Program-made: the position numbers and the translations under genes
Notes under the pieces: model-generated
What the model saw: the letters and a program-made list of their open reading frames with translations, nothing else
The model's database searches: none
Told to the model about the DNA's origin: nothing
NCBI RefSeq assembly: GCF_000768315.1
Contig: NZ_AQQX01000003.1
Coordinates: forward strand, 496,001 to 560,000
Origin: Pseudooceanicola atlanticus
Lineage (GTDB): Bacteria > Pseudomonadota > Alphaproteobacteria > Rhodobacterales > Rhodobacteraceae
DNA: 64,000 nucleotides
Direction: 5' to 3'
Shown here: positions 1,021-14,500 of the stretch, piece by piece
Numbering within the stretch: the first letter of the stretch is position 1
Layout of the letters: each line of letters opens with the position of its first letter

Positions 1021-2075
1021 ATTTTCTCGAACAGACCGGCATGGGATTGCTGCGCCGTATGGACCCTGAACAGGCCCACCGGATCGCGCTCTTCGCCATG
1101 AAATCGGGCCTTGCCCCCCTGCCCGGCCTGGTCACCTCGCCGCGCCTGCGCACGCAGCTGGCCGGGCTGAACCTGGCCAATCCCATCGGCCTGGCCGCCG
1201 GGTTCGACAAGAACGCAGAGGTCCTGTCGCCCCTGTCCCGCGCCGGTCTGGGCTTTATCGAGGTCGGCGGCGTCACCCCGCGCGCCCAGCCCGGCAATCC
1301 GCGCCCCCGTCTCTTCCGCCTGACCGAGGACCGCGCCGTCATCAACCGTTTCGGGTTCAACAATGACGGGATGGAGGTCATCGCCGACCGCCTGTCCCAA
1401 CGCCCCCGCGACGCGGTGATCGGCCTGAATCTAGGCGCCAACAAGGACAGCGACGACCGGGCCGAGGATTTCGCCCGCGTCCTGTCGCGCTGCGGTGAAT
1501 TCCTCGACTTCGCCACCGTCAATGTCAGCTCTCCCAACACCGAGAACCTGCGTGACCTGCAGGGTGCCGCGGCGCTCGACGCGCTGCTGGCGGGCGTGAT
1601 CGAAGCGCGGGATTGGCTGCCGCGCCGCATTCCCATTTTCCTCAAGATCGCCCCCGATCTGACCGATGCGGAAATCGTCGACATCGCCCGCGTGGCCACC
1701 AATCGCGGCCTCTCGGCGATCATCGCCACCAACACCACGCTCGACCGCAGCGGCCTCTCCAGCCCGCATCGCGAGGAAAAGGGCGGCCTCTCCGGCGCGC
1801 CCCTGTTCGAGAAATCGACCCGCGTACTTGCCCGCCTTGCCCAGGTCACCGAAGGCCAGATCCCGCTGATCGGTGTCGGCGGCATCAGCTCGGCCGAAGA
1901 CGCCTATGCCAAGATCCGCGCCGGCGCGTCGGCGGTGCAGCTTTATTCGGCCATGGTTTTCCACGGCCTTTCGCTGGGGGCCGAGATCGCCCATGGCCTC
2001 GACCGCCTGCTGGAGCGGGACGGCTTCGCCAATGTCGCCGACGCCGTCGGCACCGGGATGGAGGACTGGCTATGA
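1017..2075 (+). CDS. pyrD: Dihydroorotate dehydrogenase (quinone), class 2
   Basis: A 352-residue protein that oxidises dihydroorotate to orotate in pyrimidine synthesis, passing electrons to membrane quinone. The N-terminal amphipathic helix region (1-40, [20 protein letters not shown]) is typical of class 2 enzymes. FMN and substrate motifs follow: [14 protein letters not shown] (55-68), [10 protein letters not shown] (109-118), NVSSPNT (169-175) with catalytic Ser172, IATNTT and GVGGISS. Serine rather than cysteine as the base confirms class 2. The start is the ATG overlapping the DUF952 stop; an in-frame upstream extension only shadows DUF952. It ends in another ATGA overlap with the next gene. 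Confidence 0.96.
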
Positions 2076-2410
2076 TCCTGTGGCACAACCCGCGCTGCAC
2101 CAAGTCGCGCCAGACCCTCGCCCTGCTTCAGGAAAACGGGGTGGAGCCCACGATCCGCCTTTACCTCCAGGATCCGCCCGACACGTCCGAGATCCGCGCC
2201 GTTCTGGCCAAGCTGGACATCGCCCCGATCCAGATGATGCGGGTCAAGGAAAAGGCCTTCAAGGAGGCCGGGTTGAGCCGCGACAGCGACGATGACACGC
2301 TCATCGCCGCCATGGCCGAAACCCCGATCCTGATCGAACGCCCGATCGCGATCACCGACACACGCGCCGCCATCGGTCGCCCGCCCGAAGACGTTCTGGC
2401 CCTGCTCTGA
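2072..2410 (+). CDS. arsC: ArsC family (glutaredoxin-type) arsenate reductase-like protein
   Basis: A 112-residue thioredoxin-fold protein beginning [19 protein letters not shown]. Cys9 sits in the HNPRCTKSR context of the ArsC/Spx superfamily. The C-terminal part [20 protein letters not shown] matches the R-P-I...igRPpe block of ArsC. Members reduce arsenate with glutaredoxin, but many stand-alone copies outside ars operons have no proven arsenate role. Here it is coupled to pyrD (ATGA) with no ars genes nearby, so the family call is firm and the substrate is not. Confidence 0.85.
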
Positions 2411-2764
2411 CCGCCTCGGGCCAGCACGCACGCCGACCTCTCGCAACCCATGATTGATCCCACAGACACCGCCTGAGGGGCAGCGCGAACCTGCTTCGAC
2501 CTCACTTGATAACGGAACAGACCGCCGATCACGGTCGCGAAACGATTCGCATCAGGGGCGGCCGCTGTCCCCGAAACCCATCCGCAACTGCCCAAAAAAC
2601 ACGCAAAGTGTGAACTCGGCCCCTCTGCCACGGTGCCGGGCGCCGGTTTCCGGACGCCCTTCGGAGAGTGGGGAATTCCTTACTGTCGACTCAACACAGG
2701 GTTGTTGTAGTTTGATTGACGTTAGGTAAGGCGAATTTTTCATCCCTTTTTCCCGGAGGACGTC
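2411..2764. other. Gene-free promoter region before the peroxidase operon
   Basis: The 354 bases between the arsC-like stop and the peroxidase ATG contain no credible gene. The last 100 bases are AT-richer and hold a 17-base block TGGGGAATTCCTTACTG (2669-2685), then TTGACGTT (2716-2723) inside ATTGACGTTAGGTAAG, then the ribosome binding site CGGAGGA eight bases before the ATG at 2765. Nothing recognisable is seen in 2411-2660. Confidence 0.6.
2669..2730 (+). promoter_or_regulatory. Composite regulatory region: GGGGAATTCC block plus TTGACGTT site
   Basis: TGGGGAATTCCTTACTG (2669-2685) recurs at 23786-23802 with one mismatch, in front of the acyl-CoA synthetase gene. Both copies are followed by TTGACGTT, 47 and 37 bases after the start of the first block, a difference of one helical turn. 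ATTGACGTTAGGTAAG (2715-2730) also resembles the reverse complement of the palindromic site at 14014-14030 (ATTGACGTTAACGTAAG). The DNA similarity is seen; a regulator binding here is inferred. Confidence 0.45.
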
Positions 2765-4555
2765 ATGTCTCTCTTTTTTCAATCCCACGGCGGCAATAAT
2801 CGCCGCTCCGCCCCACCCAGAAAGTCCGCGCTTCAGGCCCGGGCCCTGATCCCTGCCGATGGCGACATCGCCGTCGACGAGGCCGGCGATTTCGGCTTCA
2901 TCCTGCCCCCCTCGGGCGATCCGGGCGATTACCTGCCCGATGACGTCCTGGCCGAACTGGACGAGCTGGGCGACCTGATGGTCCCCGCGGCCAATGCCGC
3001 CTCGCCCGACGTGACGCCGGATTCGACCATGCCCGCGGTGATGACCTATTGGGGCCAGTTCCTGGATCACGAGCTGACCGCGCGCACCGACCGCGAAACC
3101 CAGATCTCCTCGATCGAACACCCCGCCCCGACCCATACGGCGGACCAGATCGAAGCGCAGCTCAAGAATGCGCGCTCTCCGCGGTTCGACCTGGATTCGG
3201 TCTATGGCGGCCTGCCCGTCGGCCTTCAGGACAGCGCAGAGGCAGCCGCGGCCTATGCCGATGCGGCCCGCGTGATCTCGGGGATGCGGCACCCGAAATA
3301 CCCGGCCAAGATGCGCGTCGGAACCTGTGCCCCCCATGGCCCGATCCCCGACGGGCTCGACCCGCACCGCGACCTGCCCCGCTTCGGCCAGGTCGAACAT
3401 TCGGTCAAGCAAGCCTATCTCGACATCCTGGCCCGCAACCTGTCGCCCGCGGATGTGGCCAAGTTCGAGGCATCCCTCGACAGCCGCGCGCTGATCGGGG
3501 ACATGCGCAATGACGAAAACCTCAACATTGCGCAATTCCACCTCAGCTTCCTGCGGTTCCACAACCGCGTCGTCGACTTCCTCGAGGCGAACGACACCGG
3601 CTGGCTGCCCGATTTCCATTCCGCCCAGGCCCTGACCAAGCTGCATTACCAATGGCTGATCGTCGAAGGTTACCTCAAGACGGTCTGCGACCCGGCCGTG
3701 GTGCAATCGGTGCTGGCGGCCCGTGCCAAGCATTTCTTCGACTTCCGCGCCGCCCATGCGGACCGGATCGGCACCAAGACCCTGGGCGACGCCATGGCGA
3801 TGGAATTTTCCGTGGCCGCCTTCCGCTTCGGCCATTCGATGGTGCGCGATGCCTATGATTACAATGGCAATTTCGGGCGCGGCGGGGCGGCGGACAAGGC
3901 GCCCTTCGATCAGATCTTCGCCCATACCGGCGGCGGTGGCTTCGATGGCCATGGCAAGCTGCCGCGCGAACGGATCATCGACTGGTCCCGCTTCGTCACC
4001 GCCGATCCCGACAGCGCCGACGGCCATCCGGCGCGCGCGGCCCGGCGCATCGACACGCTGATCGCCCCGCCCCTCGGCGACCTGCGCAACGAGGGCGGCG
4101 AGGAAGAGGACGAGATGCTGAAAAAGCTCTTCCGTCAGCTTGCCCGCCGCAACCTGCGCCGCGGTTTCAGCCTGCGCCTGCCCACCGGACAGGCCCTGCA
4201 TGCCTACCTGAAATCCACCGGCGCGGTCACGACCGACCCGATCCCGGATGTCGGCGCGATCCTCGACAACAAGCCCAACCTGACCGGGTTCCTGCAAGGC
4301 ACGCAATCGCGGCTCTTCGAACGCACGCCGCTCTGGTTCTACGTCCTGGCCGAGGCCGAGGCAGCCGGCGGCGACCACCTGGGCGAGGTCGGCAGCTGGA
4401 TCGTGGCGAGCACCTTCGTCGCCATCCTGCTGGCCGATCCCGACAGCGCGCTGTCAAAGGATTTCGACCCGACCCACAGCCCGCTGCGCCTGCCCGATGG
4501 CAGCCCGATCGACAGCATCGAGGCCTGGATGAAATTCGCCCTCGTGCTCGAATGA
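2765..4555 (+). CDS. Animal-type haem peroxidase
   Basis: A 596-residue member of the peroxidase-cyclooxygenase superfamily (An_peroxidase). The key residues of the mammalian enzymes are in place: distal motif WGQFLDHE (96-103) with Asp101 and His102, GDMRNDEN (245-252) with Arg248 and Glu251 and the downstream FLRFHNR, and proximal His357 in FRFGHSMV. The Asp and Glu that make haem ester links in myeloperoxidase are therefore both conserved. It would use H2O2 to oxidise halides or organic substrates. No signal peptide is visible, unlike the secreted products downstream. It heads a five-gene same-strand unit with a good RBS (CGGAGGA). Substrate and location are unknown. Confidence 0.9.
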   Translation: MSLFFQSHGGNNRRSAPPRKSALQARALIPADGDIAVDEAGDFGFILPPSGDPGDYLPDDVLAELDELGDLMVPAANAASPDVTPDSTMPAVMTYWGQFLDHELTARTDRETQISSIEHPAPTHTADQIEAQLKNARSPRFDLDSVYGGLPVGLQDSAEAAAAYADAARVISGMRHPKYPAKMRVGTCAPHGPIPDGLDPHRDLPRFGQVEHSVKQAYLDILARNLSPADVAKFEASLDSRALIGDMRNDENLNIAQFHLSFLRFHNRVVDFLEANDTGWLPDFHSAQALTKLHYQWLIVEGYLKTVCDPAVVQSVLAARAKHFFDFRAAHADRIGTKTLGDAMAMEFSVAAFRFGHSMVRDAYDYNGNFGRGGAADKAPFDQIFAHTGGGGFDGHGKLPRERIIDWSRFVTADPDSADGHPARAARRIDTLIAPPLGDLRNEGGEEEDEMLKKLFRQLARRNLRRGFSLRLPTGQALHAYLKSTGAVTTDPIPDVGAILDNKPNLTGFLQGTQSRLFERTPLWFYVLAEAEAAGGDHLGEVGSWIVASTFVAILLADPDSALSKDFDPTHSPLRLPDGSPIDSIEAWMKFALVLE

Positions 4556-4643
4556 AACCCCGGCCGGGCCGTCACACAGGCGGCCCGCCCCCCGAACAGA
4601 CGCCCCAAGGCGCTGACATGACAGGACAAAGAGGACTTCAAGG

Positions 4644-6299
4644 ATGATAGACAGACGCGGACTCCTTCTGGGCCTCACCGGTGCCCTCGCCCTGCCGGGG
4701 CTGTCAGGCTGCGCCCAGGTCAGGCGGTTCTTCCAGCCCGAAGTGTCGCGCACCGCCATCGACATCCACACCCATTTCTTCAATGGCCGCGACGTGCCCG
4801 TGGTGGGCTTCCTGAAACAGACGATCATCCGCGATCCCCATGCGCCGGTCGATCCGGACATGACCACGGATGCCTTCCTGAAACTGCTGACCTCGATCCT
4901 GCTGGTGAACACGCCGACCGCGCGGGCCGAACTTGACGAGCTCGGCGGTCGCGTCGCCCCGATCCCGCGCGATGACCTGATCCGCCGCGACCAGCAGAAC
5001 GTGGCCGACGGCATCGCGCAATTCGCCGCTGCCGCCGGACCGCGCCCGACCGGCCTGTCGACCACGCGGCGGGACGAGGACCGCCTCCTCGACCGTATCG
5101 CTGAGGAGGTCGGAACCCCCGGCCTGCGCAATTCGCTGCAAACCCCGCAGGCCCAGGCCCGGACCCTCGCAAACCGCATCTATGACCGGGGCGCCGGGGG
5201 CCTCACCACCGGGCAGCCGCGCGATTACCTGCATTACTCGCCGCTGATCCAGACGATCCGCTGGGCCGGGCTGCTGACCCGGTCGCGCATCGACATCCTG
5301 GCCGAACTCGACCGGCTCTATGGCGGTCAGACCGGCATCCGCATCTTTTCGCCCTCGCTGGTGGATTTCGGCGCCTGGCTTGTCACCGAAGAGGACGTGA
5401 CCCCGATCGAGGACCAGATCGAACTGGTCGCCGCCATCGCGCGCAAGCACACCTCGTCGCTGATCCTGCCCTTCGCCCCCTTCTGCCCCCTGCGCGCCGC
5501 GCTGGAACGCGAGGACGACCCCTCCGTCGATCCGCTGCGCAACGTCAAGCATGCGGTGCTCGACCTGGGCTTTCTGGGGATCAAGCTCTACCCGCCCATG
5601 GGGTTCCGCCCCATCGGCAACAACACCGACCTGACCTGGGTGCCGCGCAAGCCTCGCGACGGCCCCCCCGCCCTGGATCGTGAGCTCGAGGCGCTCTACG
5701 CCTGGTGTGTCGAGAACGAGGTGCCGATCAAGGCCCATGCCAACAATTCCATCGCCGCCGGCCCCAATACCGGGACCTTCGCCGATCCGGCGGGCTGGCA
5801 AGTGGTGCTGCGCGATCCGCGGTTCAAGAACCTTCAGCTGAACCTGGCCCATTTCGGCGGCTTCGACGAAACCGGGCACGACGACGCCTTCACCTCAGGC
5901 TCGGATTGGGAGGCGACGATGGCCGCGATGGTCGGCGAATTTCCCAATGTCTATTTCGACCTCGGCTACTGGACCGATGCCGCCGAGATCGACAATGACG
6001 ACCGCCAGCGCGTGTTGGACCGTACCGCCGCGCTGATCGCATCGACGCCCAAGATGCTGGACCGGATGATGTATGGCTCCGACTTCTCGATGATCGGCCG
6101 CGTGCCCAGCCATCCCGCCTATCTCTCCGGGCTTCACCAGACCTTCGACGATCTCGGCCTCACCCCGGCCCAGACAGAGGCCGTCATGGGCGGCAATGCC
6201 GCCGCCTATCTCGGGCTCGATCGGCGCGGAAAGCAACGCGCGCGATTGGCCCATGTCTACAAAACCCACCCTATTTACCAGGACATTTTCGAGGATTGA
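4644..6299 (+). CDS. Lipoprotein amidohydrolase (amidohydrolase_2-like TIM barrel)
   Basis: A 551-residue metal-dependent hydrolase. The N-terminus MIDRRGLLLGLTGALALPGLSGC carries a twin-Arg-like start and a lipobox LSGC with Cys23, so it is probably a membrane-anchored periplasmic lipoprotein. The barrel starts with AIDIHTHFFN (HxH, His42/His44), then IKAHANNS (about 362-369), LNLAHFGG (about 399-406) and MYGSDFSM (about 477-484, catalytic Asp). This is the metal ligand pattern of amidohydrolase_2 decarboxylases and hydrolases. It follows the peroxidase by 88 bases and precedes the metalloprotease by three. The substrate is unknown. Confidence 0.85.
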   Translation: MIDRRGLLLGLTGALALPGLSGCAQVRRFFQPEVSRTAIDIHTHFFNGRDVPVVGFLKQTIIRDPHAPVDPDMTTDAFLKLLTSILLVNTPTARAELDELGGRVAPIPRDDLIRRDQQNVADGIAQFAAAAGPRPTGLSTTRRDEDRLLDRIAEEVGTPGLRNSLQTPQAQARTLANRIYDRGAGGLTTGQPRDYLHYSPLIQTIRWAGLLTRSRIDILAELDRLYGGQTGIRIFSPSLVDFGAWLVTEEDVTPIEDQIELVAAIARKHTSSLILPFAPFCPLRAALEREDDPSVDPLRNVKHAVLDLGFLGIKLYPPMGFRPIGNNTDLTWVPRKPRDGPPALDRELEALYAWCVENEVPIKAHANNSIAAGPNTGTFADPAGWQVVLRDPRFKNLQLNLAHFGGFDETGHDDAFTSGSDWEATMAAMVGEFPNVYFDLGYWTDAAEIDNDDRQRVLDRTAALIASTPKMLDRMMYGSDFSMIGRVPSHPAYLSGLHQTFDDLGLTPAQTEAVMGGNAAAYLGLDRRGKQRARLAHVYKTHPIYQDIFED

Positions 6300-6302
6300 C
6301 AG

Positions 6303-7553
6303 ATGCTTACCCCCGTTCTCCGCCCCACCCTTCCGCTGCTTGTCGCGCTGGCCCTTGCCGGTCCGGCCACGGCCCAGCCGGTTGATCCCGACACTGGCGA
6401 CGCCGCCCTGGCCGACCTCGCCGAAGCCGCCCGCGAGGCGCGATCCGGCCTCAGCTTCGAGGAATTCCGCGACCAGACCACCTATATCCCCGAGACGGGC
6501 AAGTATTACGTCAACGGCGATACGCCCATCCGCAACGAAAAGCTGCTGCGCGAATTCTGGGAACAGAACGTGCGCAACAAACCCGTGCCCCCCATGGGCG
6601 AGACGCCCGAATTCACCGTCATCAATGTCGGCGGGCTCGATCAGCTCTGGGGGCCCGTCGAAAAGCACAACCTGACCTATTGCGTCAGCACCGCCTTCGG
6701 CAGCCGCCACGCGCTGGTCGTGGGCGACATGCAGGCCGCCGCCGCCGCGTGGGAGGCCGTGGCCGATCTCGATTTCTCCTACATCGCGTCGCAGGACGGC
6801 GATTGCGACGCCGCCAATGACGAGGTGATGTTCGACGTGCGCCCGGTGAATGCGGGCGGGCAATTCCTGGCCGCCGCCTTCTTTCCCAACGACCCGAGAG
6901 AGGCGCGCAGCGTGGTGATCGACCCGTCCTCCTTCTCGCTGGACCCCAATGGCAACCTGACCCTGCGCGGCATCCTGCGCCACGAACTAGGCCACGTGAT
7001 CGGTGCGCGCCATGAACATGTCCGCCCCGAGGCCGGCACCTGTTTCGAAGATAATGACTGGCGGGGCGTCACCGATTACGATGCGTTTTCGGTCATGCAT
7101 TACCCGCAATGCAACGGGCTGGGCGACTGGTCGCTGCGCCTGACCGAGACCGACAAGAGCGGCGTCGCCTGCCTTTATGGGGCCGCCGCGGGTTTCACCA
7201 TCGACACCGATATCTGCACGCCCGAGGCCGGCACCAACGCCCCCGAAAGCGAAAGCTTCGGCCCCTTCACCGTGGCGCAGGGCGAAACCCGGCTCATCAC
7301 CTCCGTGCCCGTCACCCCCGGCACCGTCTTCCGGGCCGAGATGACCGGCAGCGGCGATCCCGACCTCTATGTAAAGCTCGACGGTCCGGCGCTGATCTCC
7401 AGCTACGATTGCCGCCCCTACACGTCAGGGGCCGAGGAAACCTGCGACTTCGTCGTGCCCGCCAACCGCTCCACCGCCTTCATCGCGGTGCATGGCTACA
7501 CGGACGGCGAATTCACCGTGACCGTCACGGCCACCGCCCCGCTGCCGCAATGA
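6303..7553 (+). CDS. Secreted astacin-like zinc metalloprotease with C-terminal PPC domain
   Basis: A 416-residue precursor with a Sec signal peptide (1-25, ending ATAQ). The zinc site HELGHVIGARHEH (His227, Glu228, His231, His237) is a full metzincin HExxHxxGxxH followed by Glu238 as in astacins, and SVMHY (263-267) is the Met-turn in its astacin form. DKSGVACLYG closes the catalytic domain. Residues about 320-416 (GETRLITSVPV, DPDLYVKLDG, ending in FTVTVTA) fit a bacterial pre-peptidase C-terminal (PPC) domain, usually removed after secretion. It starts three bases after the amidohydrolase stop, so co-transcription is very likely. Confidence 0.9.
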   Translation: MLTPVLRPTLPLLVALALAGPATAQPVDPDTGDAALADLAEAAREARSGLSFEEFRDQTTYIPETGKYYVNGDTPIRNEKLLREFWEQNVRNKPVPPMGETPEFTVINVGGLDQLWGPVEKHNLTYCVSTAFGSRHALVVGDMQAAAAAWEAVADLDFSYIASQDGDCDAANDEVMFDVRPVNAGGQFLAAAFFPNDPREARSVVIDPSSFSLDPNGNLTLRGILRHELGHVIGARHEHVRPEAGTCFEDNDWRGVTDYDAFSVMHYPQCNGLGDWSLRLTETDKSGVACLYGAAAGFTIDTDICTPEAGTNAPESESFGPFTVAQGETRLITSVPVTPGTVFRAEMTGSGDPDLYVKLDGPALISSYDCRPYTSGAEETCDFVVPANRSTAFIAVHGYTDGEFTVTVTATAPLPQ

Positions 7554-7599
7554 TCCGCACCTCCGAATGAAGACCCAGATGATGAAAAGGAGACCCCCG

Positions 7600-9843
7600 A
7601 TGATCCGACGCAGCCTTCTGGCCTGGACCGCGCTCCTTGCGGCCTCCACGGCCTCCGTCGCGACCGCCGAAATGGCGGTGCCCCAGATCACCTTCCAGTG
7701 GCAACCCGACGCCGCCAACGCCATCGAATTGTCCAACGAGATCGAGGCGCTCTACCTCGCGCTCTATAATTCCGGCAACCTCACCGTGCGCGACGCAGAA
7801 CTGGGCCAGCCCCCCTTCGTGGAATCGCTGATGCGCCAGGAACAGGTGATGCATGGCGCCCATTTCCCCGTCGCGCTGGACGCGATGATGTGCGACCTGA
7901 ACCCCGACCATTGCCGCCGCACCCTGCGCCCCGCCGGGTCAGGCGAGTTGCGGGACCTGACGGCCCATGTGGGCGGCTACGTCCCCAGCCGCGGCCGCTG
8001 GTCCCTGCGCGGTGGCGAGACGCTGAACATCCCCGATTACGACTTCATGACCACCACGACGCTGGAACGCATCCCCGCCCCCAAGGGCTGGACACCCGAT
8101 GCCTTCGTCGCGGATCAGGGGCTGGATTGCTCGGCCTTCAAGGCCAGCTGCGAAGACGTCGTGCGGCGCTTCAACCCGCAGCTTCTCAAGGCGCCCGCCT
8201 CGGGCAACGTGGCGATCACCGTGCCGCAACAGCAGATCGGCACCACCGTCGCCCTGCGGCCCGACACGCGCTCTAGCTATCTCAACCAGCTGAAAGAGGT
8301 GATGAACCCCGACCAGTCCGGCAGCATCGCCCAGCTCAGCTTTGACGAGGGCAGCACCTTCTCCCCGACCTGGAATCAGACACTCGAAAGCCGCTCCCCG
8401 GCGGACCTGGCGATCGAGGCGATCCGCCAGAACGTTCAGACCATCGGCACGATCCAGAATTTCGGGGTCGGCGACGAACCCTTCCTGCACAGCCAGATCG
8501 GGCTGTTCAAACTGGTGAACCACCCCTTCGCCCGGCTCGAGGACCTGGACGAAACCCAATCCCAGCCGGTGCATGTGGCGGTGATCGATTCCCGCCTGTC
8601 CGACGGGCATTGCGACCTGCCGGTGATCCGCCTGTCCGACGGCACCGACCTGGCACCGCCTGCCCCCGAAACCGATGCGGAGACGACCCCGACCCCGGTG
8701 TCGGACACCACAACGCCAGCGCCGCCCCCTGCCGACACCTGCGCCACCATCGACCACCTTGCCATGTCCGATGCCGATCACGCGGCGGGCGTGGCCGGCG
8801 TCATCGCCTCGCGCGCCAATGGCAAGGGCATGGTCGGCATGAACCCCCATGCCCGGCTCTGGATGATGGCGTTCGACCGCAACCGCGTCGCCGATCAGCA
8901 GATCGACAACCTGATCCTGCAAATGCAGATCGCCATCCCCGAAGACGTGCGCGTCGCCAATCTCAGCTTCGGGGTGCAGCCGCGGCTGTCCAACCCGGGC
9001 CGCATGGCCAATGCGATGGCGGTTCTCGGCTCCCGCATGCTCATCGTGGCCGCGGCCGGCAATGAAGGCGAGAAATTCGACGCTCAGCATTGCCCGGTCC
9101 TGCCCGCTTGCCTGAACGATCTGGACAACGTGCTGACCGTGGTCGGGCTGGACAGCGACATGGACGATCCCGGCCTCTGGACCTCGCAATCCGCGGGTTC
9201 CAATTCCAACCCGGCCTTCGACATCGGCGCGCCCGCGGAAAACATCCTCAGCACCGCGACAGGCAACCGCTTCACCCACCAGGCCGGCACCTCCTTCGCC
9301 GCGCCGCAGGTCACGGCGGCGGCCTCTCTCGTCTTCTCGACCGGCGAATATGTCTACGGCGACGAACTGGCCGGGGCGCAGCTGTCGCCCAAGATCGTCA
9401 AGGATCGGCTGATCTACACCTCGGATTTCTTCGCCGGCCTGTCTGGCGCGGTCCGTGCCGGGCGGCTCAATGTCGGGCGGGCGATCAACGTCCGCGAAGC
9501 GCAGTTCGAGTTGTTCGACGGCCGCACCATCACCGGACAGGTGCTCGAGGCCCCGGACGAATTCGTCTGCCGTACCCCGATCGCAGGCCAGCAATTCCAG
9601 AAATGGTACAACCTGCGCCGCCTGTCCTGGAACGAGACCAAGCAGCGGCATTTCCTCTTCCGCCATGTCGGCAGCGACCTCGGCGGGCGCTACGGGGTGC
9701 TGGAACGCGATGCCTCCTGCCTGGTGCGCACGCTGTCGGCCCCGGTCGAGGTGCTGGTGCGCCAGAACAACGGCCCCGGAGAGGTCGTGAGCTTCCAGTT
9801 CCGCGACATCCGCGACTACACCTCGCCCCTGTTCGACCAATGA
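7600..9843 (+). CDS. Secreted S8 family serine peptidase (subtilase)
   Basis: From the ATG at 7600 it is 747 residues. That start is chosen because AAGGAG lies at the right distance and the signal peptide MIRRSLLAWTALLAAS then begins cleanly; in-frame ATGs at 7567 and 7579 lack this. The triad is intact: Asp330 in VAVIDSRLSDGHCD, His394 in DHAAGVAGVIAS, Ser565 in GTSFAAPQVTAAA, with oxyanion Asn488 in AAAGNEG. Between Asp and His lies a Pro/Thr-rich insert with cysteines. Roughly 290 residues precede the catalytic domain and may act as a propeptide or binding region. It overlaps the next gene by four bases. Confidence 0.92.
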   Translation: MIRRSLLAWTALLAASTASVATAEMAVPQITFQWQPDAANAIELSNEIEALYLALYNSGNLTVRDAELGQPPFVESLMRQEQVMHGAHFPVALDAMMCDLNPDHCRRTLRPAGSGELRDLTAHVGGYVPSRGRWSLRGGETLNIPDYDFMTTTTLERIPAPKGWTPDAFVADQGLDCSAFKASCEDVVRRFNPQLLKAPASGNVAITVPQQQIGTTVALRPDTRSSYLNQLKEVMNPDQSGSIAQLSFDEGSTFSPTWNQTLESRSPADLAIEAIRQNVQTIGTIQNFGVGDEPFLHSQIGLFKLVNHPFARLEDLDETQSQPVHVAVIDSRLSDGHCDLPVIRLSDGTDLAPPAPETDAETTPTPVSDTTTPAPPPADTCATIDHLAMSDADHAAGVAGVIASRANGKGMVGMNPHARLWMMAFDRNRVADQQIDNLILQMQIAIPEDVRVANLSFGVQPRLSNPGRMANAMAVLGSRMLIVAAAGNEGEKFDAQHCPVLPACLNDLDNVLTVVGLDSDMDDPGLWTSQSAGSNSNPAFDIGAPAENILSTATGNRFTHQAGTSFAAPQVTAAASLVFSTGEYVYGDELAGAQLSPKIVKDRLIYTSDFFAGLSGAVRAGRLNVGRAINVREAQFELFDGRTITGQVLEAPDEFVCRTPIAGQQFQKWYNLRRLSWNETKQRHFLFRHVGSDLGGRYGVLERDASCLVRTLSAPVEVLVRQNNGPGEVVSFQFRDIRDYTSPLFDQ

Positions 9844-10979
9844 CCCGGCTGCCGCTCCTCCTGCTCGCGCTTGCGGGCCCCGCGATTGCCCAGGACGACA
9901 GCGCACGCCCCGGCCCCGTGCTCGAGGCCTATGTCGACGGGCTGATCGAGGCCCGCGACATCCGCATCGGCGCCGCCGAACGCACCGGCCCGTCCCCCGT
10001 CCCGTGGAGCGACGAGATCAGCGTGCCCGGCTCCGACTATATCCGCCTGCACCTGCGCGTCGAAGGCCCGCCCTTCCCGCCGGATGCCACCCTGCGCCTG
10101 CTGGGCGCGCTGGATCAGGACGTGGCGATCCCGCTCGACCGGGTCGGCCCCGATGGCATGTGGAGCGACCTGATGCCCTTCGGTCGCGCCCGCATCGCGC
10201 TGGTCGCGCCCACGCCCATCGACCCTCAAAGCACGCTCTTCATCGACCAGCTGATGATGCAAAGCACCAAGATCACGCCCTATTCCGTGCATGGCATCAA
10301 CCAGCTGACACCGATCAACGATGCCGCAGTCCCGGCCGACCTGCGCGCACTTGGCGCGCCCGTGGCCTTCCTGTCCTTCATCGAAGGCGGCTTTGCCCGC
10401 ACCTGTTCGGGCTTCCTGATAGGTCCCGACCGGCTGATGACCAACGAACATTGCATCAACAGCGCCGCAACCTGCGCCTCGATGACCGCCGTTTTCGGCT
10501 ATGAATTCGATACTGAGGGACGGCTTGGCATGGGGCCGCAGCTGCGCTGTCGCGATTTCGAAGCGGCGCAGGTGAACGTCACGCTCGATGCCAGCGTCGT
10601 CACCCTGACCGGCGCGCCCGGCCCCGAATACGGCCAGGTCGACCTCGCCATGCTCGGCGACGCTGCCGATGGCCCGATGGTGGTGATCCAGCATCCCGGC
10701 CCGCAGCCCAAGCAGATCTCATTTCTCGATTGCGACGCGGGCGAGACGCGGATCGCCGGCCGCGGGCCCGAGACGGACTTCACCCATACCTGCGACACTG
10801 CCGGCGGGTCGTCCGGCGCGCCGATCTTCGATGTCAGCGGACGGTTGGTCGGCCTGCATCATTTCGGGTTCCAGGATGGCGAGGCCTGGGACAGCAATCG
10901 CGGCGTCCATGCCGACCGCATCCAGGACTGGCTAAGCCCCGACACCACGGCCTACCCCGCCGAAACCCCACCGGAGTGA
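9840..10979 (+). CDS. Secreted trypsin-like serine protease
   Basis: A 379-residue precursor starting at the ATG that overlaps the subtilase TGA (ATGA). The signal peptide MTRLPLLLLALAGPAIAQ is clear. The chymotrypsin-fold triad is His204 in LMTNEHCI, Asp268 in QVDLAML and Ser325 in GGSSGAPIFD. Several cysteines flank the His and Ser sites, fitting a disulfide-bonded exported protease. The 180 residues before the protease domain contain a beta-rich region (SDYIRLHLRVEGPPFP) possibly for binding. It is the last gene of the peroxidase/protease unit and converges on the MATE gene across only 16 bases with no obvious terminator. Confidence 0.9.
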   Translation: MTRLPLLLLALAGPAIAQDDSARPGPVLEAYVDGLIEARDIRIGAAERTGPSPVPWSDEISVPGSDYIRLHLRVEGPPFPPDATLRLLGALDQDVAIPLDRVGPDGMWSDLMPFGRARIALVAPTPIDPQSTLFIDQLMMQSTKITPYSVHGINQLTPINDAAVPADLRALGAPVAFLSFIEGGFARTCSGFLIGPDRLMTNEHCINSAATCASMTAVFGYEFDTEGRLGMGPQLRCRDFEAAQVNVTLDASVVTLTGAPGPEYGQVDLAMLGDAADGPMVVIQHPGPQPKQISFLDCDAGETRIAGRGPETDFTHTCDTAGGSSGAPIFDVSGRLVGLHHFGFQDGEAWDSNRGVHADRIQDWLSPDTTAYPAETPPE

Positions 10980-10995: not shown

Positions 10996-12315
10996 TCAGG
11001 CCTCCACCCGGTCCGCGTCCCGCTCCAGCCCGGGATACTTGATCGCCAGCGTCACGCCGCGCGCCGCGAACGAGATCAGCAGCGCCGCCCACAGCCCGTG
11101 ATTGCCCAGCCACGGCATCAACACCGCCAATGCGATGCCATAGATGACAAAGCTCACGGCCATCATGTTGCGCATGTCCACCGACCGCGCCGCCCCGATG
11201 AAGATGCCGTCCAGCATCCAGGACGCCACGCCGATGATCGGCGCCGCCACCATCCACGGCAGATAGGCCCGCGCTGCCTGCTGCACCGGTTCGGATTTCG
11301 CCATCAGGTCGATGATCATCCCGCCGGTCAGGGCAAAGACCACGGCCAGCACCACGCAGATGATCAGCCCCCACAGCCCCGTCAGCAGCGACCCGCGCCG
11401 CAGCGCAGCCCGGTCGCCGCGCCCCAGGGCCTGGCCCACGAAGGCCTCGGCGGCAAAGGCGAACCCGTCCAGCGCATAGGCGGTGATGAACAGGAACTGG
11501 ATCAGCACCTGGTTCGCCGCCAGTTGCACATCGCCGAAATCCGACCCGAAGAACATGAAGGACAGGAAGATCACCTGCAGCAGCATCGACCGGATCAGGA
11601 TGTCGCGATTGACCAGCGCCATCCGGGTCAGACGCACGCGGTCGAACACCCTCTCCCAGTCGCGCCAGGCGGGCACGCGAAACGCCGCGCGGCAATACCA
11701 CAGGCCCAGGGCCACGCCGCATAGCTCGGAAATCACAGTCGCCACGGCCACGCCGCGCACGCCCCAGTCGAAGCCCAGCACGAACAGCACGTCGAGCCCC
11801 ATGTTCATGCCGTTCATCACCACCTGGATGCCCAGAACGGCCCGGGTCCGTTCCTGCGCGATCAGCCAGCCAGTGATCCCGTAGATGGCAATCGCCGCCG
11901 GGGCCGACCAGATGCGGATCGCCATGTATTGCCGCGCCAGCCCCTCGACCTCGTCACTGGCGGGCGAGATGCGGAAGGCGCCCCAGAAGATCGGCCATTG
12001 CAGCACGATCAGCGCCAGCCCCCCGGCCAGCCCGACCATCAGCGCGCGGGTCAGCAGCGCGGCGACCTCGGCGGTTTCGCCCCGGCCCACGGCATTGGCG
12101 GTCAGGCCCGTCGTGCCCATCCGCAGGAAGCCGAAGATCCAGTAGATCGCCGTCAGGGTGACGCCGCCGATCCCCACGGCCCCGATCGGGGCCGCCGCAC
12201 CCATCTGGCCGACCACGCCGGTATCGACGGCGGCCAGCAGCGGCACGGTGGCGTTGGACAGCACGATCGGCAGGGCGATCTGCAGCACCCGCCGGTGGGT
12301 GATCGGGTCCGCCAT
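10996..12315 (-). CDS. MATE family efflux transporter (DinF-like)
   Basis: A 439-residue integral membrane protein with about twelve hydrophobic segments. The N-terminal half has the MATE pattern ALPIVLSNATVPLLAAVDTGVVG, then GTTGLTANAVGRGE, and the second half repeats the fold (ANQVLIQFLFITAYALDGFAFAAE, FVGQALGRGDR). MATE proteins export cationic drugs and metabolites in exchange for H+ or Na+; the DinF branch fits best. The thioesterase gene lies nine bases upstream on the same strand, so it is probably the last gene of a three-gene unit. The substrate cannot be read from sequence. Confidence 0.93.
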   Translation of the reverse strand: MADPITHRRVLQIALPIVLSNATVPLLAAVDTGVVGQMGAAAPIGAVGIGGVTLTAIYWIFGFLRMGTTGLTANAVGRGETAEVAALLTRALMVGLAGGLALIVLQWPIFWGAFRISPASDEVEGLARQYMAIRIWSAPAAIAIYGITGWLIAQERTRAVLGIQVVMNGMNMGLDVLFVLGFDWGVRGVAVATVISELCGVALGLWYCRAAFRVPAWRDWERVFDRVRLTRMALVNRDILIRSMLLQVIFLSFMFFGSDFGDVQLAANQVLIQFLFITAYALDGFAFAAEAFVGQALGRGDRAALRRGSLLTGLWGLIICVVLAVVFALTGGMIIDLMAKSEPVQQAARAYLPWMVAAPIIGVASWMLDGIFIGAARSVDMRNMMAVSFVIYGIALAVLMPWLGNHGLWAALLISFAARGVTLAIKYPGLERDADRVEA

Positions 12316-13471: not shown

Positions 13472-13885
13472 ATGAGTGAAACACGCCTGAGTTTCAAGGA
13501 GATGTGCGCCAGGTTCGAGGTGACCCCACGCACCCTTCGCTATTACGAGTATATCGAGCTTCTGCACCCCGAACGCGAAGGCCGGTCCCGGTTCTACTCG
13601 GCCCGCGACTGCGCCCGGATGAAGCTGATCCTGCGCGGCAGAAAATACGGTTTTCCACTTGAAAACATCCGCCAATGGCTCGACCTCTATGACGAGGAAG
13701 GCTCTGCCGCCCAGATGCAAAGCTGGGTGGAAAACGCCGACACCCAACTGGCCGAACTGCGCGAGCAGCGCGACCAGATCGATGAAACCATCGCGGAGCT
13801 TCAGGCGTTGCGCGATCGCACCGCGGCCAGCCTCGCCGCCTATGACGAATCAACCGAGGCCGTGCAGGACATCGTCGAGGACTGA
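13472..13885 (+). CDS. MerR family transcriptional regulator (copy 1)
   Basis: A 137-residue regulator. The winged-helix DNA-binding part is FKEMCARFEVTPRTLRYYEYIELLHPEREG (about 6-35), followed by RDCARMKLILRGRKYGFPLENIRQWLDLYD, and then a coiled-coil dimer helix (about 80-135). It has no cysteine metal-binding loop, so it is not a metal sensor and belongs to the short MerR group that controls acyl-CoA metabolism (LiuR-like) in proteobacteria. It is a paralogue of the next gene, sharing TPRTLR(Y/F)YE and LKLILRG. Its target is probably the adjacent fad genes (inference from position). Confidence 0.9.
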   Translation: MSETRLSFKEMCARFEVTPRTLRYYEYIELLHPEREGRSRFYSARDCARMKLILRGRKYGFPLENIRQWLDLYDEEGSAAQMQSWVENADTQLAELREQRDQIDETIAELQALRDRTAASLAAYDESTEAVQDIVED

Positions 13886-14095: not shown

Positions 14096-14500
14096 ATGGA
14101 AAACGAGCGACAGATGACCATCCGCGAGATGTGCGACGCGTATGACGTGACCCCGCGCACCCTGCGGTTCTACGAAGCGAAGGAGCTTTTGTTTCCGATC
14201 CGCGAAGGCCAGAAGCGCCTGTTCACGCGGCGTGACCGGGCCCGGCTCAAGCTGATCCTGCGCGGCAAGCGCTTCGGCTTCAGCCTGGAAGAGATCCGCC
14301 AGCTACTGGATCTCTACGACATGGGCGATCAGCAGCACACCCAGCTGGTGAAGACCTACGAGATCGCCCAGGAACGCCTCGCGGAAATGGAAAGCCGTCG
14401 GGATGAGCTGAACGCAGCCATCGACGACCTGAAGCAACAGATGGACTGGGGCGCGCAGATGATCGCCTCGTTCGAAGACGACAAGACCGCGGCCGAGTGA
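14096..14500 (+). CDS. MerR family transcriptional regulator (copy 2)
   Basis: A 134-residue MerR regulator with HTH IREMCDAYDVTPRTLRFYEAKELLFPIREGQ (about 9-40), RDRARLKLILRGKRFGFSLEEIRQLLDLYD and a C-terminal coiled coil rich in Glu, Arg and Gln. There is no metal-binding cysteine cluster. It resembles the preceding MerR protein closely, which suggests a tandem duplication with divergence of the effector end. It lies 42 bases before the acyl-CoA dehydrogenase on the same strand and behind a strong palindrome, so it is the best candidate to control the operon. Confidence 0.9.
   Translation: MENERQMTIREMCDAYDVTPRTLRFYEAKELLFPIREGQKRLFTRRDRARLKLILRGKRFGFSLEEIRQLLDLYDMGDQQHTQLVKTYEIAQERLAEMESRRDELNAAIDDLKQQMDWGAQMIASFEDDKTAAE

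What the first reader, a model, noticed from the sequence alone, without database searches (positions are those of the whole stretch)
2669..10979. Five-gene unit: animal-type haem peroxidase, lipoprotein amidohydrolase and three different secreted proteases
One strand carries, with gaps of 88, 3 and 46 bases and a 4-base overlap, an intact haem peroxidase (Asp101, His102, Arg248, Glu251, His357), a lipoprotein amidohydrolase, an astacin-like metzincin with a PPC domain, a subtilase and a trypsin-like protease, all with intact catalytic residues. I know of no described system with this make-up. Metallo-, subtilisin- and trypsin-type proteases together with an oxidant-making enzyme suggest a secreted attack, matrix-remodelling or activation cascade in which one protease matures another. 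The function is inference; the gene content is seen directly.
Basis: partly seen in the sequence, partly recalled or inferred. Interest (0 to 1): 0.85.

Follow-up and report, generated by a model that had tools for sequence, protein, structure and literature searches.

The report
Mobile protease operon with optional peroxidase
A bacterium carries a compact, apparently transferable set of four exported protein-cutting and related enzymes, sometimes led by an animal-type haem peroxidase, and relatives of that peroxidase often lie beside proteases, which hints at an undescribed bacterial weapon or self-defence system.

Summary
In detail: five intact genes on one strand with the stated gaps and catalytic residues. 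The unit lies in 8.6 kb between arsC and a MATE gene, which are near neighbours in 11 of 20 other congeneric loci; only the window's genome has the peroxidase (of 22) or metzincin (of 19 searched).

The conserved core is four genes: Tat-type lipoprotein amidohydrolase, metzincin-PPC, subtilase, trypsin-like protease. In 394 family genomes the metzincin occurs in 7, always with the amidohydrolase and subtilase. A 4-base subtilase/trypsin overlap is kept in 7 of 7 loci. Only 2 of those 7 genomes have the haem peroxidase (an eighth has peroxidase plus amidohydrolase at a contig end). It has no visible signal peptide, so a jointly secreted oxidant is not supported.

Peroxidases of this clade lie within 6 kb of S8, trypsin, papain or metzincin proteases in 20 of 30 well-flanked loci, against 2 of 37 for more distant ones; one neighbours a NucA-trypsin system. 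Best explanation (inferred): an exported zymogen cascade used in conflict or stress, joined by a leaderless peroxidase effector. The searches made found no account of this operon; function is untested.

The parts
2411..2764 (+). Leader between arsC and the unit, presumed promoter region
   Evidence: No sigma-70-like site found in it; one terminator-like site at 2687-2704, in a scan that found no more such sites than shuffles do; no motif shared with the leaders of L003, L104, L105, L167 or L004 beyond weak 12-mer matches
2765..4555 (+). Animal-type haem peroxidase (PF03098), 596 aa, no visible signal peptide; D101, H102, R248, E251, H357 intact; optional member
4644..6299 (+). Amidohydrolase (Amidohydro_2), 551 aa, twin-arginine N-terminus and lipobox Cys23, likely metal ligands H42, H44, H365, H403, D480; core gene 1
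   Evidence: those residues, R4, R5 and C23 invariant in 7 sequences
6303..7553 (+). Metzincin with PPC domain, 416 aa, signal peptide by eye, HELGHVIGARHEH and Met265; core gene 2
7600..9843 (+). Subtilase S8, 747 aa, signal peptide by eye, about 300-aa N-terminal region, D330, H394, N488, S565; core gene 3
9840..10979 (+). Trypsin-like protease (Trypsin_2), 379 aa, signal peptide by eye, about 150-aa N-terminal region, H204, D250, S325; core gene 4, 4-base overlap with the subtilase
   Evidence: overlap in 7 of 7 loci with both genes intact
2072..2410 (+). Left flank: arsC (after pyrD)
   Evidence: Near MATE in 11 of 20 loci from other genomes of the genus; names by sequence inspection
10996..12315 (-). 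Right flank: MATE transporter gene, convergent
   Evidence: MATE name by sequence inspection

Best explanation
A laterally transferred operon whose core is an exported proteolytic cascade: a Tat-exported lipoprotein amidohydrolase, a metzincin zymogen, a subtilase and a trypsin-like protease. Most likely the trypsin-like protease, or the subtilase, cuts the metzincin propeptide (a VxGD motif like the astacin aspartate switch, followed by an Arg) and so switches it on at the cell surface. The peroxidase is an accessory effector: a leaderless enzyme that uses hydrogen peroxide to make reactive oxidants inside the cell, or outside after lysis. The set probably serves conflict or stress response rather than housekeeping. 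Shown: gene content, co-inheritance, conserved active sites, arsC-MATE junction without the unit in congeners, recurrent peroxidase-protease linkage. Inferred: co-transcription, export, activation order, oxidant, purpose.
For: Same five-gene order in the window, L003 and L104 with different flanking genes; core without peroxidase in L167, L168, L169 and, decayed, L170. Metzincin in 7, amidohydrolase in 8, subtilase in 7 of 394 family genomes; the seven metzincin genomes all have the other two. In the genus the peroxidase is in 1 of 22 and the metzincin in 1 of 19 genomes searched, both times only the window's own; junction without the unit in congeners. Catalytic residues conserved. G72 and D73 of the propeptide invariant in 7 of 7, Arg91 position kept in 6 of 7; Asp319, at the trypsin S1-pocket spacing (recalled), invariant in 7 of 7. 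A distant metzincin-S8-trypsin trio in the same order on Rhizobium plasmid pRL10. Peroxidase clade near proteases in 20 of 30 loci, against 2 of 37 for distant peroxidases, including a trypsin-NucA-S8 fusion with trypsin and NACHT-like genes in L007.
Against: Five of the 7 family genomes with the metzincin core gave no peroxidase at E 1e-30, and the peroxidase is leaderless, so it may not act with the exported enzymes. Close peroxidases also stand without such proteases (10 of 30 loci). No sensor, NTPase, nuclease, immunity protein or dedicated regulator was seen in the window unit. Patchy presence fits a nutritional operon equally well. L104 lacks the Arg at the proposed cleavage site, and L169 has Glu for the catalytic Asp of the subtilase. 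A terminator-like site lies in the leader.
Confidence: 0.42

Rival explanations
1. Nutritional operon: exported proteases degrade environmental protein, the amidohydrolase trims a product, and the peroxidase detoxifies peroxide.
For: Four of five proteins look exported; three proteases of different classes would widen cleavage; L167 has what look like peptide ABC transporter genes upstream (by sequence inspection only).
Against: No peptide transporter inside the unit; the flanking MATE gene is an efflux type (by inspection). Long conserved N-terminal regions rather than bare digestive enzymes. Related peroxidases sit with proteases that look leaderless, and with caspase and NucA-trypsin genes, which are not digestive.
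Confidence: 0.25
2. Two modules side by side: the four-gene hydrolase operon and the peroxidase only share a landing site and have no joint function.
For: The peroxidase is missing from 5 of 7 family genomes with the metzincin core and lives in other contexts elsewhere.
Against: The peroxidase has the same place and strand, 36-88 bases before the amidohydrolase, in the window, L104 and L003. The peroxidases of the four linked loci form one clade with 90% ultrafast bootstrap, which is below the usual 95. Chance co-occurrence in 394 genomes is unlikely (P 0.0002 for 3 genomes shared by 8 with the amidohydrolase and 7 close peroxidases; 0.011 against all 26).
Confidence: 0.2
3. Envelope or peptide maturation: the proteases process a surface protein or a peptide made elsewhere, and the amidohydrolase modifies it.
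For: Lipoprotein anchor; the Rhizobium trio lies near an N-acetylmuramoyl-alanine amidase and an M23 peptidase; the subtilase matches the mycosin and PatA models far below their cut-offs, as many S8 enzymes do.
Against: No precursor-peptide gene was recognised in the unit (one search listed ORFs of 90 aa or more only; short ORFs were not searched).
Confidence: 0.13

Closest known systems
NucA-trypsin conflict systems ('System 3', Kaur et al. 2020, PMC7159879; section 32 and 12 passages read)
   Same: Mostly alphaproteobacterial operons with several peptidases (trypsin, sometimes S8), proposed to work by a proteolytic cascade; L007 carries such genes beside a close relative of this peroxidase.
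   Different: The window unit has no NucA nuclease, NTPase or recognised EAD, and its proteases carry signal peptides by eye. The word peroxidase does not occur in that main text.
SARP/TPR-like regulator + PAP2 + S8 + haem peroxidase + LCAT-trypsin + trypsin cluster of Marivita, Thalassobacter, Loktanella (seen here)
   Same: Peroxidase 57-61% identical to the window's, with S8 and trypsin-type proteases adjacent.
   Different: Regulator, PAP2 protein and lipase present; no amidohydrolase or metzincin found; the proteases look leaderless by eye. Pfam was run on the L014 set; the other loci rest on profiles built here.
Peroxidase-cyclooxygenase superfamily, bacterial peroxicins (Zamocky et al. 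2015, PMC4420034; passages read)
   Same: Distal His, Arg, ester-type Asp and Glu and proximal His; that review calls the role of peroxicins (Family 5) completely unknown.
   Different: No RTX or PERCAL calcium motif and a single peroxidase match; which family it belongs to was not tested with a tree.
Metzincin-S8-serine protease trio of Rhizobium ruizarguesonis plasmid pRL10
   Same: Same gene order; metzincin E 3.6e-42 and trypsin including part of its N-terminal region E 3.9e-25 to the window profiles.
   Different: No match to the peroxidase or amidohydrolase profiles in the 16.9 kb examined; the subtilase is only distantly related (E 1e-7).
Vertebrate neutrophil granule enzymes: myeloperoxidase with serine proteases (recalled)
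   Same: Same pairing of oxidant-making haem peroxidase and serine proteases.
   Different: An analogy only; no Met at the myeloperoxidase Met243 position (N252; position recalled), and no shared organisation is claimed.

Membership tests
Animal haem peroxidase (PF03098) | Profile match and distal Asp-His, Arg..Glu, proximal His | tested here: met
   57.7 bits, cut-off 25; five residues invariant in 13 sequences; weak lactoperoxidase alignment (E 0.0016) at the same motifs
Mn-oxidising MopA-type peroxidase | RTX or other calcium-binding repeats (feature recalled) | tested here: not met
   No RTX, PERCAL or dockerin-like pattern in P0001
Cyclooxygenase or fatty-acid dioxygenase | Catalytic Tyr three residues before the proximal His (recalled) | tested here: not met
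   R354 is at that position
Astacin (M12A) | HExxHxxGxxHExxR signature and Met-turn; profile above cut-off | tested here: inconclusive
   Signature present and Met265 invariant in 7; Pfam Astacin 17.8 bits, below 22.5, while M10 passes; PDB profile hits include both BMP1 and stromelysin-3
Subtilase S8 | Profile match and Asp-His-Ser triad | tested here: met
   85.7 bits; triad present in the window; Asp is Glu in 1 of 7 sequences
Trypsin-like (Trypsin_2) | Profile match and His-Asp-Ser triad | tested here: met
   58.9 bits; H204, D250, S325 invariant in 7
NucA-trypsin conflict system (System 3) | NucA endonuclease gene | tested here: not met
   No Endonuclease_NS match among the five proteins
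NucA-trypsin conflict system (System 3) | Trypsin-like peptidase, several peptidases in one operon | tested here: met
   Three peptidase genes in a row; co-transcription not shown
Known anti-phage system (PADLOC 2023) | Match to a system-defining model | tested here: not met
   Only subtilase, IetS and RT-Protease partial matches for the S8 and trypsin-like proteins
Exported proteins | Cleaved signal peptides | not testable with these tools
   Judged by eye; no signal-peptide predictor available

The most novel reading that the evidence does not exclude
A clade of bacterial animal-type haem peroxidases is an unrecognised effector class of protease-cascade conflict systems (trypsin, S8, papain, caspase, NucA, NACHT-like NTPase, lipases), and the window unit is an exported branch of it: a bacterial pairing of peroxidase and serine proteases that works like neutrophil granule contents.
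Probability: 0.3. Interest if true: 0.85.

Novelty: new variant of a known kind. Interest (0 to 1): 0.6.

Why it matters
The review whose passages were read here calls the role of bacterial peroxicins, relatives of myeloperoxidase, completely unknown. A repeated link to protease and conflict-type genes gives a testable role and suggests that pairing peroxidase with serine proteases also arose in bacteria. The four-gene core is a defined, apparently mobile proteolytic operon that can be cloned and assayed.

Tried and rejected
Rejected: Mn oxidation (no calcium repeats); cyclooxygenase or dioxygenase (no Tyr); known anti-phage system (neighbour tallies showed no consistent system, the latter list being cut at 25 of 63 families); phage origin (no match in the phage collection). 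Led nowhere: AlphaFold models of the subtilase (pLDDT 27) and the trypsin-like protein (pLDDT 39) were too poor to use, so no fold search was run; leader motif comparison; promoter scan. Literature searches listed no paper on this operon; lists were capped (one search showed 20 of 495, 12 of 44). My first gene caller missed genes in lower-GC loci, one search stopped with an error, and a second caller was used from then on. The shared N-terminal part of L108, L109, L112 and L114 was first taken for an adaptor domain; Pfam then matched GDSL lipase in L109 and, below its cut-off, in L108.

Limits of counts: the identity groups were set; its HMMs were seeded from neighbours of the closer loci; L001, L002, L021, L106 and L075-L099 were dropped as redundant or short, and only loci with 5-kb flanks entered the 20 of 30 against 2 of 37 (all kept loci: 25 of 38 against 2 of 53). 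Five similar Marivita-type loci (L013-L016, L020) count separately (16 of 26 by subtraction if collapsed). The two positives of the distant group, L115 and L117, lie just under the identity cut. G265 has two contigs whose 938-base overlap is 94% identical, so it holds two copies or is a mixed assembly; it is represented by one contig and by the other, and its branch combines the two.
Full report
OBSERVATION. Five intact genes lie on the + strand at 2765-4555, 4644-6299, 6303-7553, 7600-9843 and 9840-10979, with gaps of 88, 3, 46 and -4 bases. Pfam assigns An_peroxidase, Amidohydro_2, Peptidase_M10 plus PPC, Peptidase_S8 and Trypsin_2, all above curated cut-offs. The metzincin carries the astacin-type signature (recalled), but the Astacin model itself is below its cut-off. 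Pfam searches found one S8 gene, one An_peroxidase gene and six Trypsin_2 genes in the 4.94-Mb genome, so the cluster is not a chance pile-up.

INSERTION. In the genus the peroxidase is in 1 of 22 genomes and the metzincin in 1 of 19 searched, each time only the window's own. The right-hand neighbour, a MATE gene, is in 21 of 22. In 11 of the 20 MATE loci from other genomes arsC lies next to MATE, with 9 to 362 bases between the two matches; a twelfth has pyrD there, and eight show neither within the 1.5 kb held. In the window 8,585 bases lie between them. A discrete acquisition is the simplest reading; repeated loss elsewhere is not excluded. Terminal repeats and integrases were not looked for.

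THE CORE IS FOUR GENES. The whole five-gene unit recurs in the same order in L003 (an Alphaproteobacteria MAG) and L104 (a one-contig genome of another genus); L105 (Tropicimonas, the same contig as L002) has peroxidase and amidohydrolase and then the contig ends. Flanking genes differ between the window, L003 and L104. In 394 family genomes the peroxidase query hits 26 at E 1e-30, the metzincin 7 and the subtilase 7 at E 1e-20, and the amidohydrolase 8 at E 1e-30. The seven metzincin genomes are exactly the subtilase genomes, and all have the amidohydrolase next to them. In G265 the module is spread over two contigs that overlap at 94% identity, so it has two copies or is a mixed assembly. 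The eighth amidohydrolase genome, G028, is the one whose contig ends. Of the seven, two have the peroxidase (window, G076); with G028 that is three of eight. The other five gave no peroxidase match anywhere at that threshold. The trypsin-like gene was not searched across all 394, but it follows the subtilase in the window, L003, L104, L167, L168, L169, L172 and, broken, L170. The 4-base subtilase-trypsin overlap is present in 7 of 7 loci with both genes intact. A profile of the metzincin found two hits in 357 genomes drawn from the class, both already known. On plasmids, Rhizobium ruizarguesonis pRL10 has a distant metzincin-S8-trypsin trio in the same order, so the three-protease association may be older than the family.

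TREES. Peroxidases of the four linked loci (window, L104, L105, L003) group together with 90% ultrafast bootstrap, while in the four-gene tree the peroxidase-bearing loci are mixed with bare ones (its G265 row joins two contigs). With the same position before the amidohydrolase, the simplest reading is one ancient joining and several losses, but 90% is below the usual 95 and few sequences were available.

THE PEROXIDASE ELSEWHERE. A scan of genome contigs gave 73 loci. With profiles for S8, trypsin, papain and metzincin, proteases lie within 6 kb in 20 of 30 well-flanked closer loci and 2 of 37 more distant ones (Fisher P 1.1e-7); 1 of the 30 had one at 6-12 kb. The limits of this test are given under Tried and rejected. 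A Pfam tally of nearest neighbours agrees: the three commonest families near the closer peroxidases are Peptidase_S8 (8 of 113), PAP2 (7) and Trypsin_2 (6), with GDSL lipase (3), LCAT (3), caspase (2) and M10 (2) also there; none of these is in the 25 families listed of 160 for the distant set of 116. Specific layouts: regulator, PAP2, S8, peroxidase, LCAT-trypsin, trypsin in Marivita and relatives; a trypsin-NucA-S8 fusion, a further trypsin and a NACHT-like ATPase (all NTPase models below cut-off) in L007, which resembles the published NucA-trypsin system with its STAND NTPase; papain-like proteases in L112 (Pfam), L101 (annotation) and, by a profile seeded from L112, L108, L109 and L114; caspase domains in L108 and L109; an M6 protease in L103, which one search counted as without a protease. 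Against this, 10 of the 30 closer loci have no such protease by these profiles: L004-L006, L009, L022, L025, L100, L102, L103 and L110. The plasmid collection had 34 records with a match, all under 60% identity; the phage collection had none.

HOW IT MAY WORK. By eye the amidohydrolase has a twin-arginine lipoprotein signal (R4, R5 and C23 invariant in 7) and the three proteases have Sec signals; the peroxidase has none. The metzincin propeptide holds an invariant GD in a VxGD context like the astacin aspartate switch (recalled) and an Arg before the presumed mature domain in 6 of 7. The trypsin-like protein has Asp at the trypsin S1-pocket spacing in 7 of 7. This makes trypsin-type activation of the metzincin plausible; it is inference. 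The peroxidase would act in the cytoplasm or after lysis unless it leaves by another route.

LITERATURE. Passages and section 32 of PMC7159879, passages of PMC8195603 and passages of PMC4420034 were read; the other papers were seen only in search listings. Neither conflict-system paper contains the word peroxidase in its main text. Nine searches, with capped lists, showed no description of this operon; most subscription papers and all bioRxiv preprints are outside the library.

VERDICT. A real, conserved and apparently mobile operon of exported hydrolases with an optional haem peroxidase; a new variant of the protease-cascade kind, with function untested. The most interesting part is the wider link between this peroxidase clade and proteases, which none of the searches made showed in print.

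Noticed in passing
L014:6701-7819, L012, L018, L008, L111, L115, L116, L023, L024, L027: PAP2-type proteins (Pfam match tested for L014; others by a profile built here) beside the peroxidase start with simple tandem repeats that differ between loci (GGF, GGV, GAT, RS, QG, RSG, NAG, GAGGS, GGA, GGK), next to a SARP/TPR-like regulator.
   Followed up: partly
L175:7854-12429: Conjugative Rhizobium plasmid pRL10 carries a metzincin-S8-trypsin trio in the window order, near an amidase and an M23 peptidase.
   Followed up: partly
L170 (G369:C1:1676000-1695900): A copy of the four-gene module with internal stops, apparently decaying.
   Followed up: partly
L171 and L172 (G265): Two contigs carry overlapping ends of the module at 94% identity: two copies or a mixed assembly.
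   Followed up: partly
L169:7621-9789: Subtilase of the module has Glu in place of the catalytic Asp330.
   Followed up: no
L108, L109, L112, L114: Proteins sharing an N-terminal part (GDSL-lipase match in L109, weaker in L108) are fused either to a caspase-like domain or to a trypsin-like domain near the peroxidase.
   Followed up: partly
L107:6338-8749: A RoxA-like cytochrome c protein lies next to a close relative of the peroxidase.
   Followed up: no
window 13472-13885 and 14096-14500: Two MerR-like regulator genes in tandem upstream of an acyl-CoA dehydrogenase-like gene (by sequence inspection).
   Followed up: no
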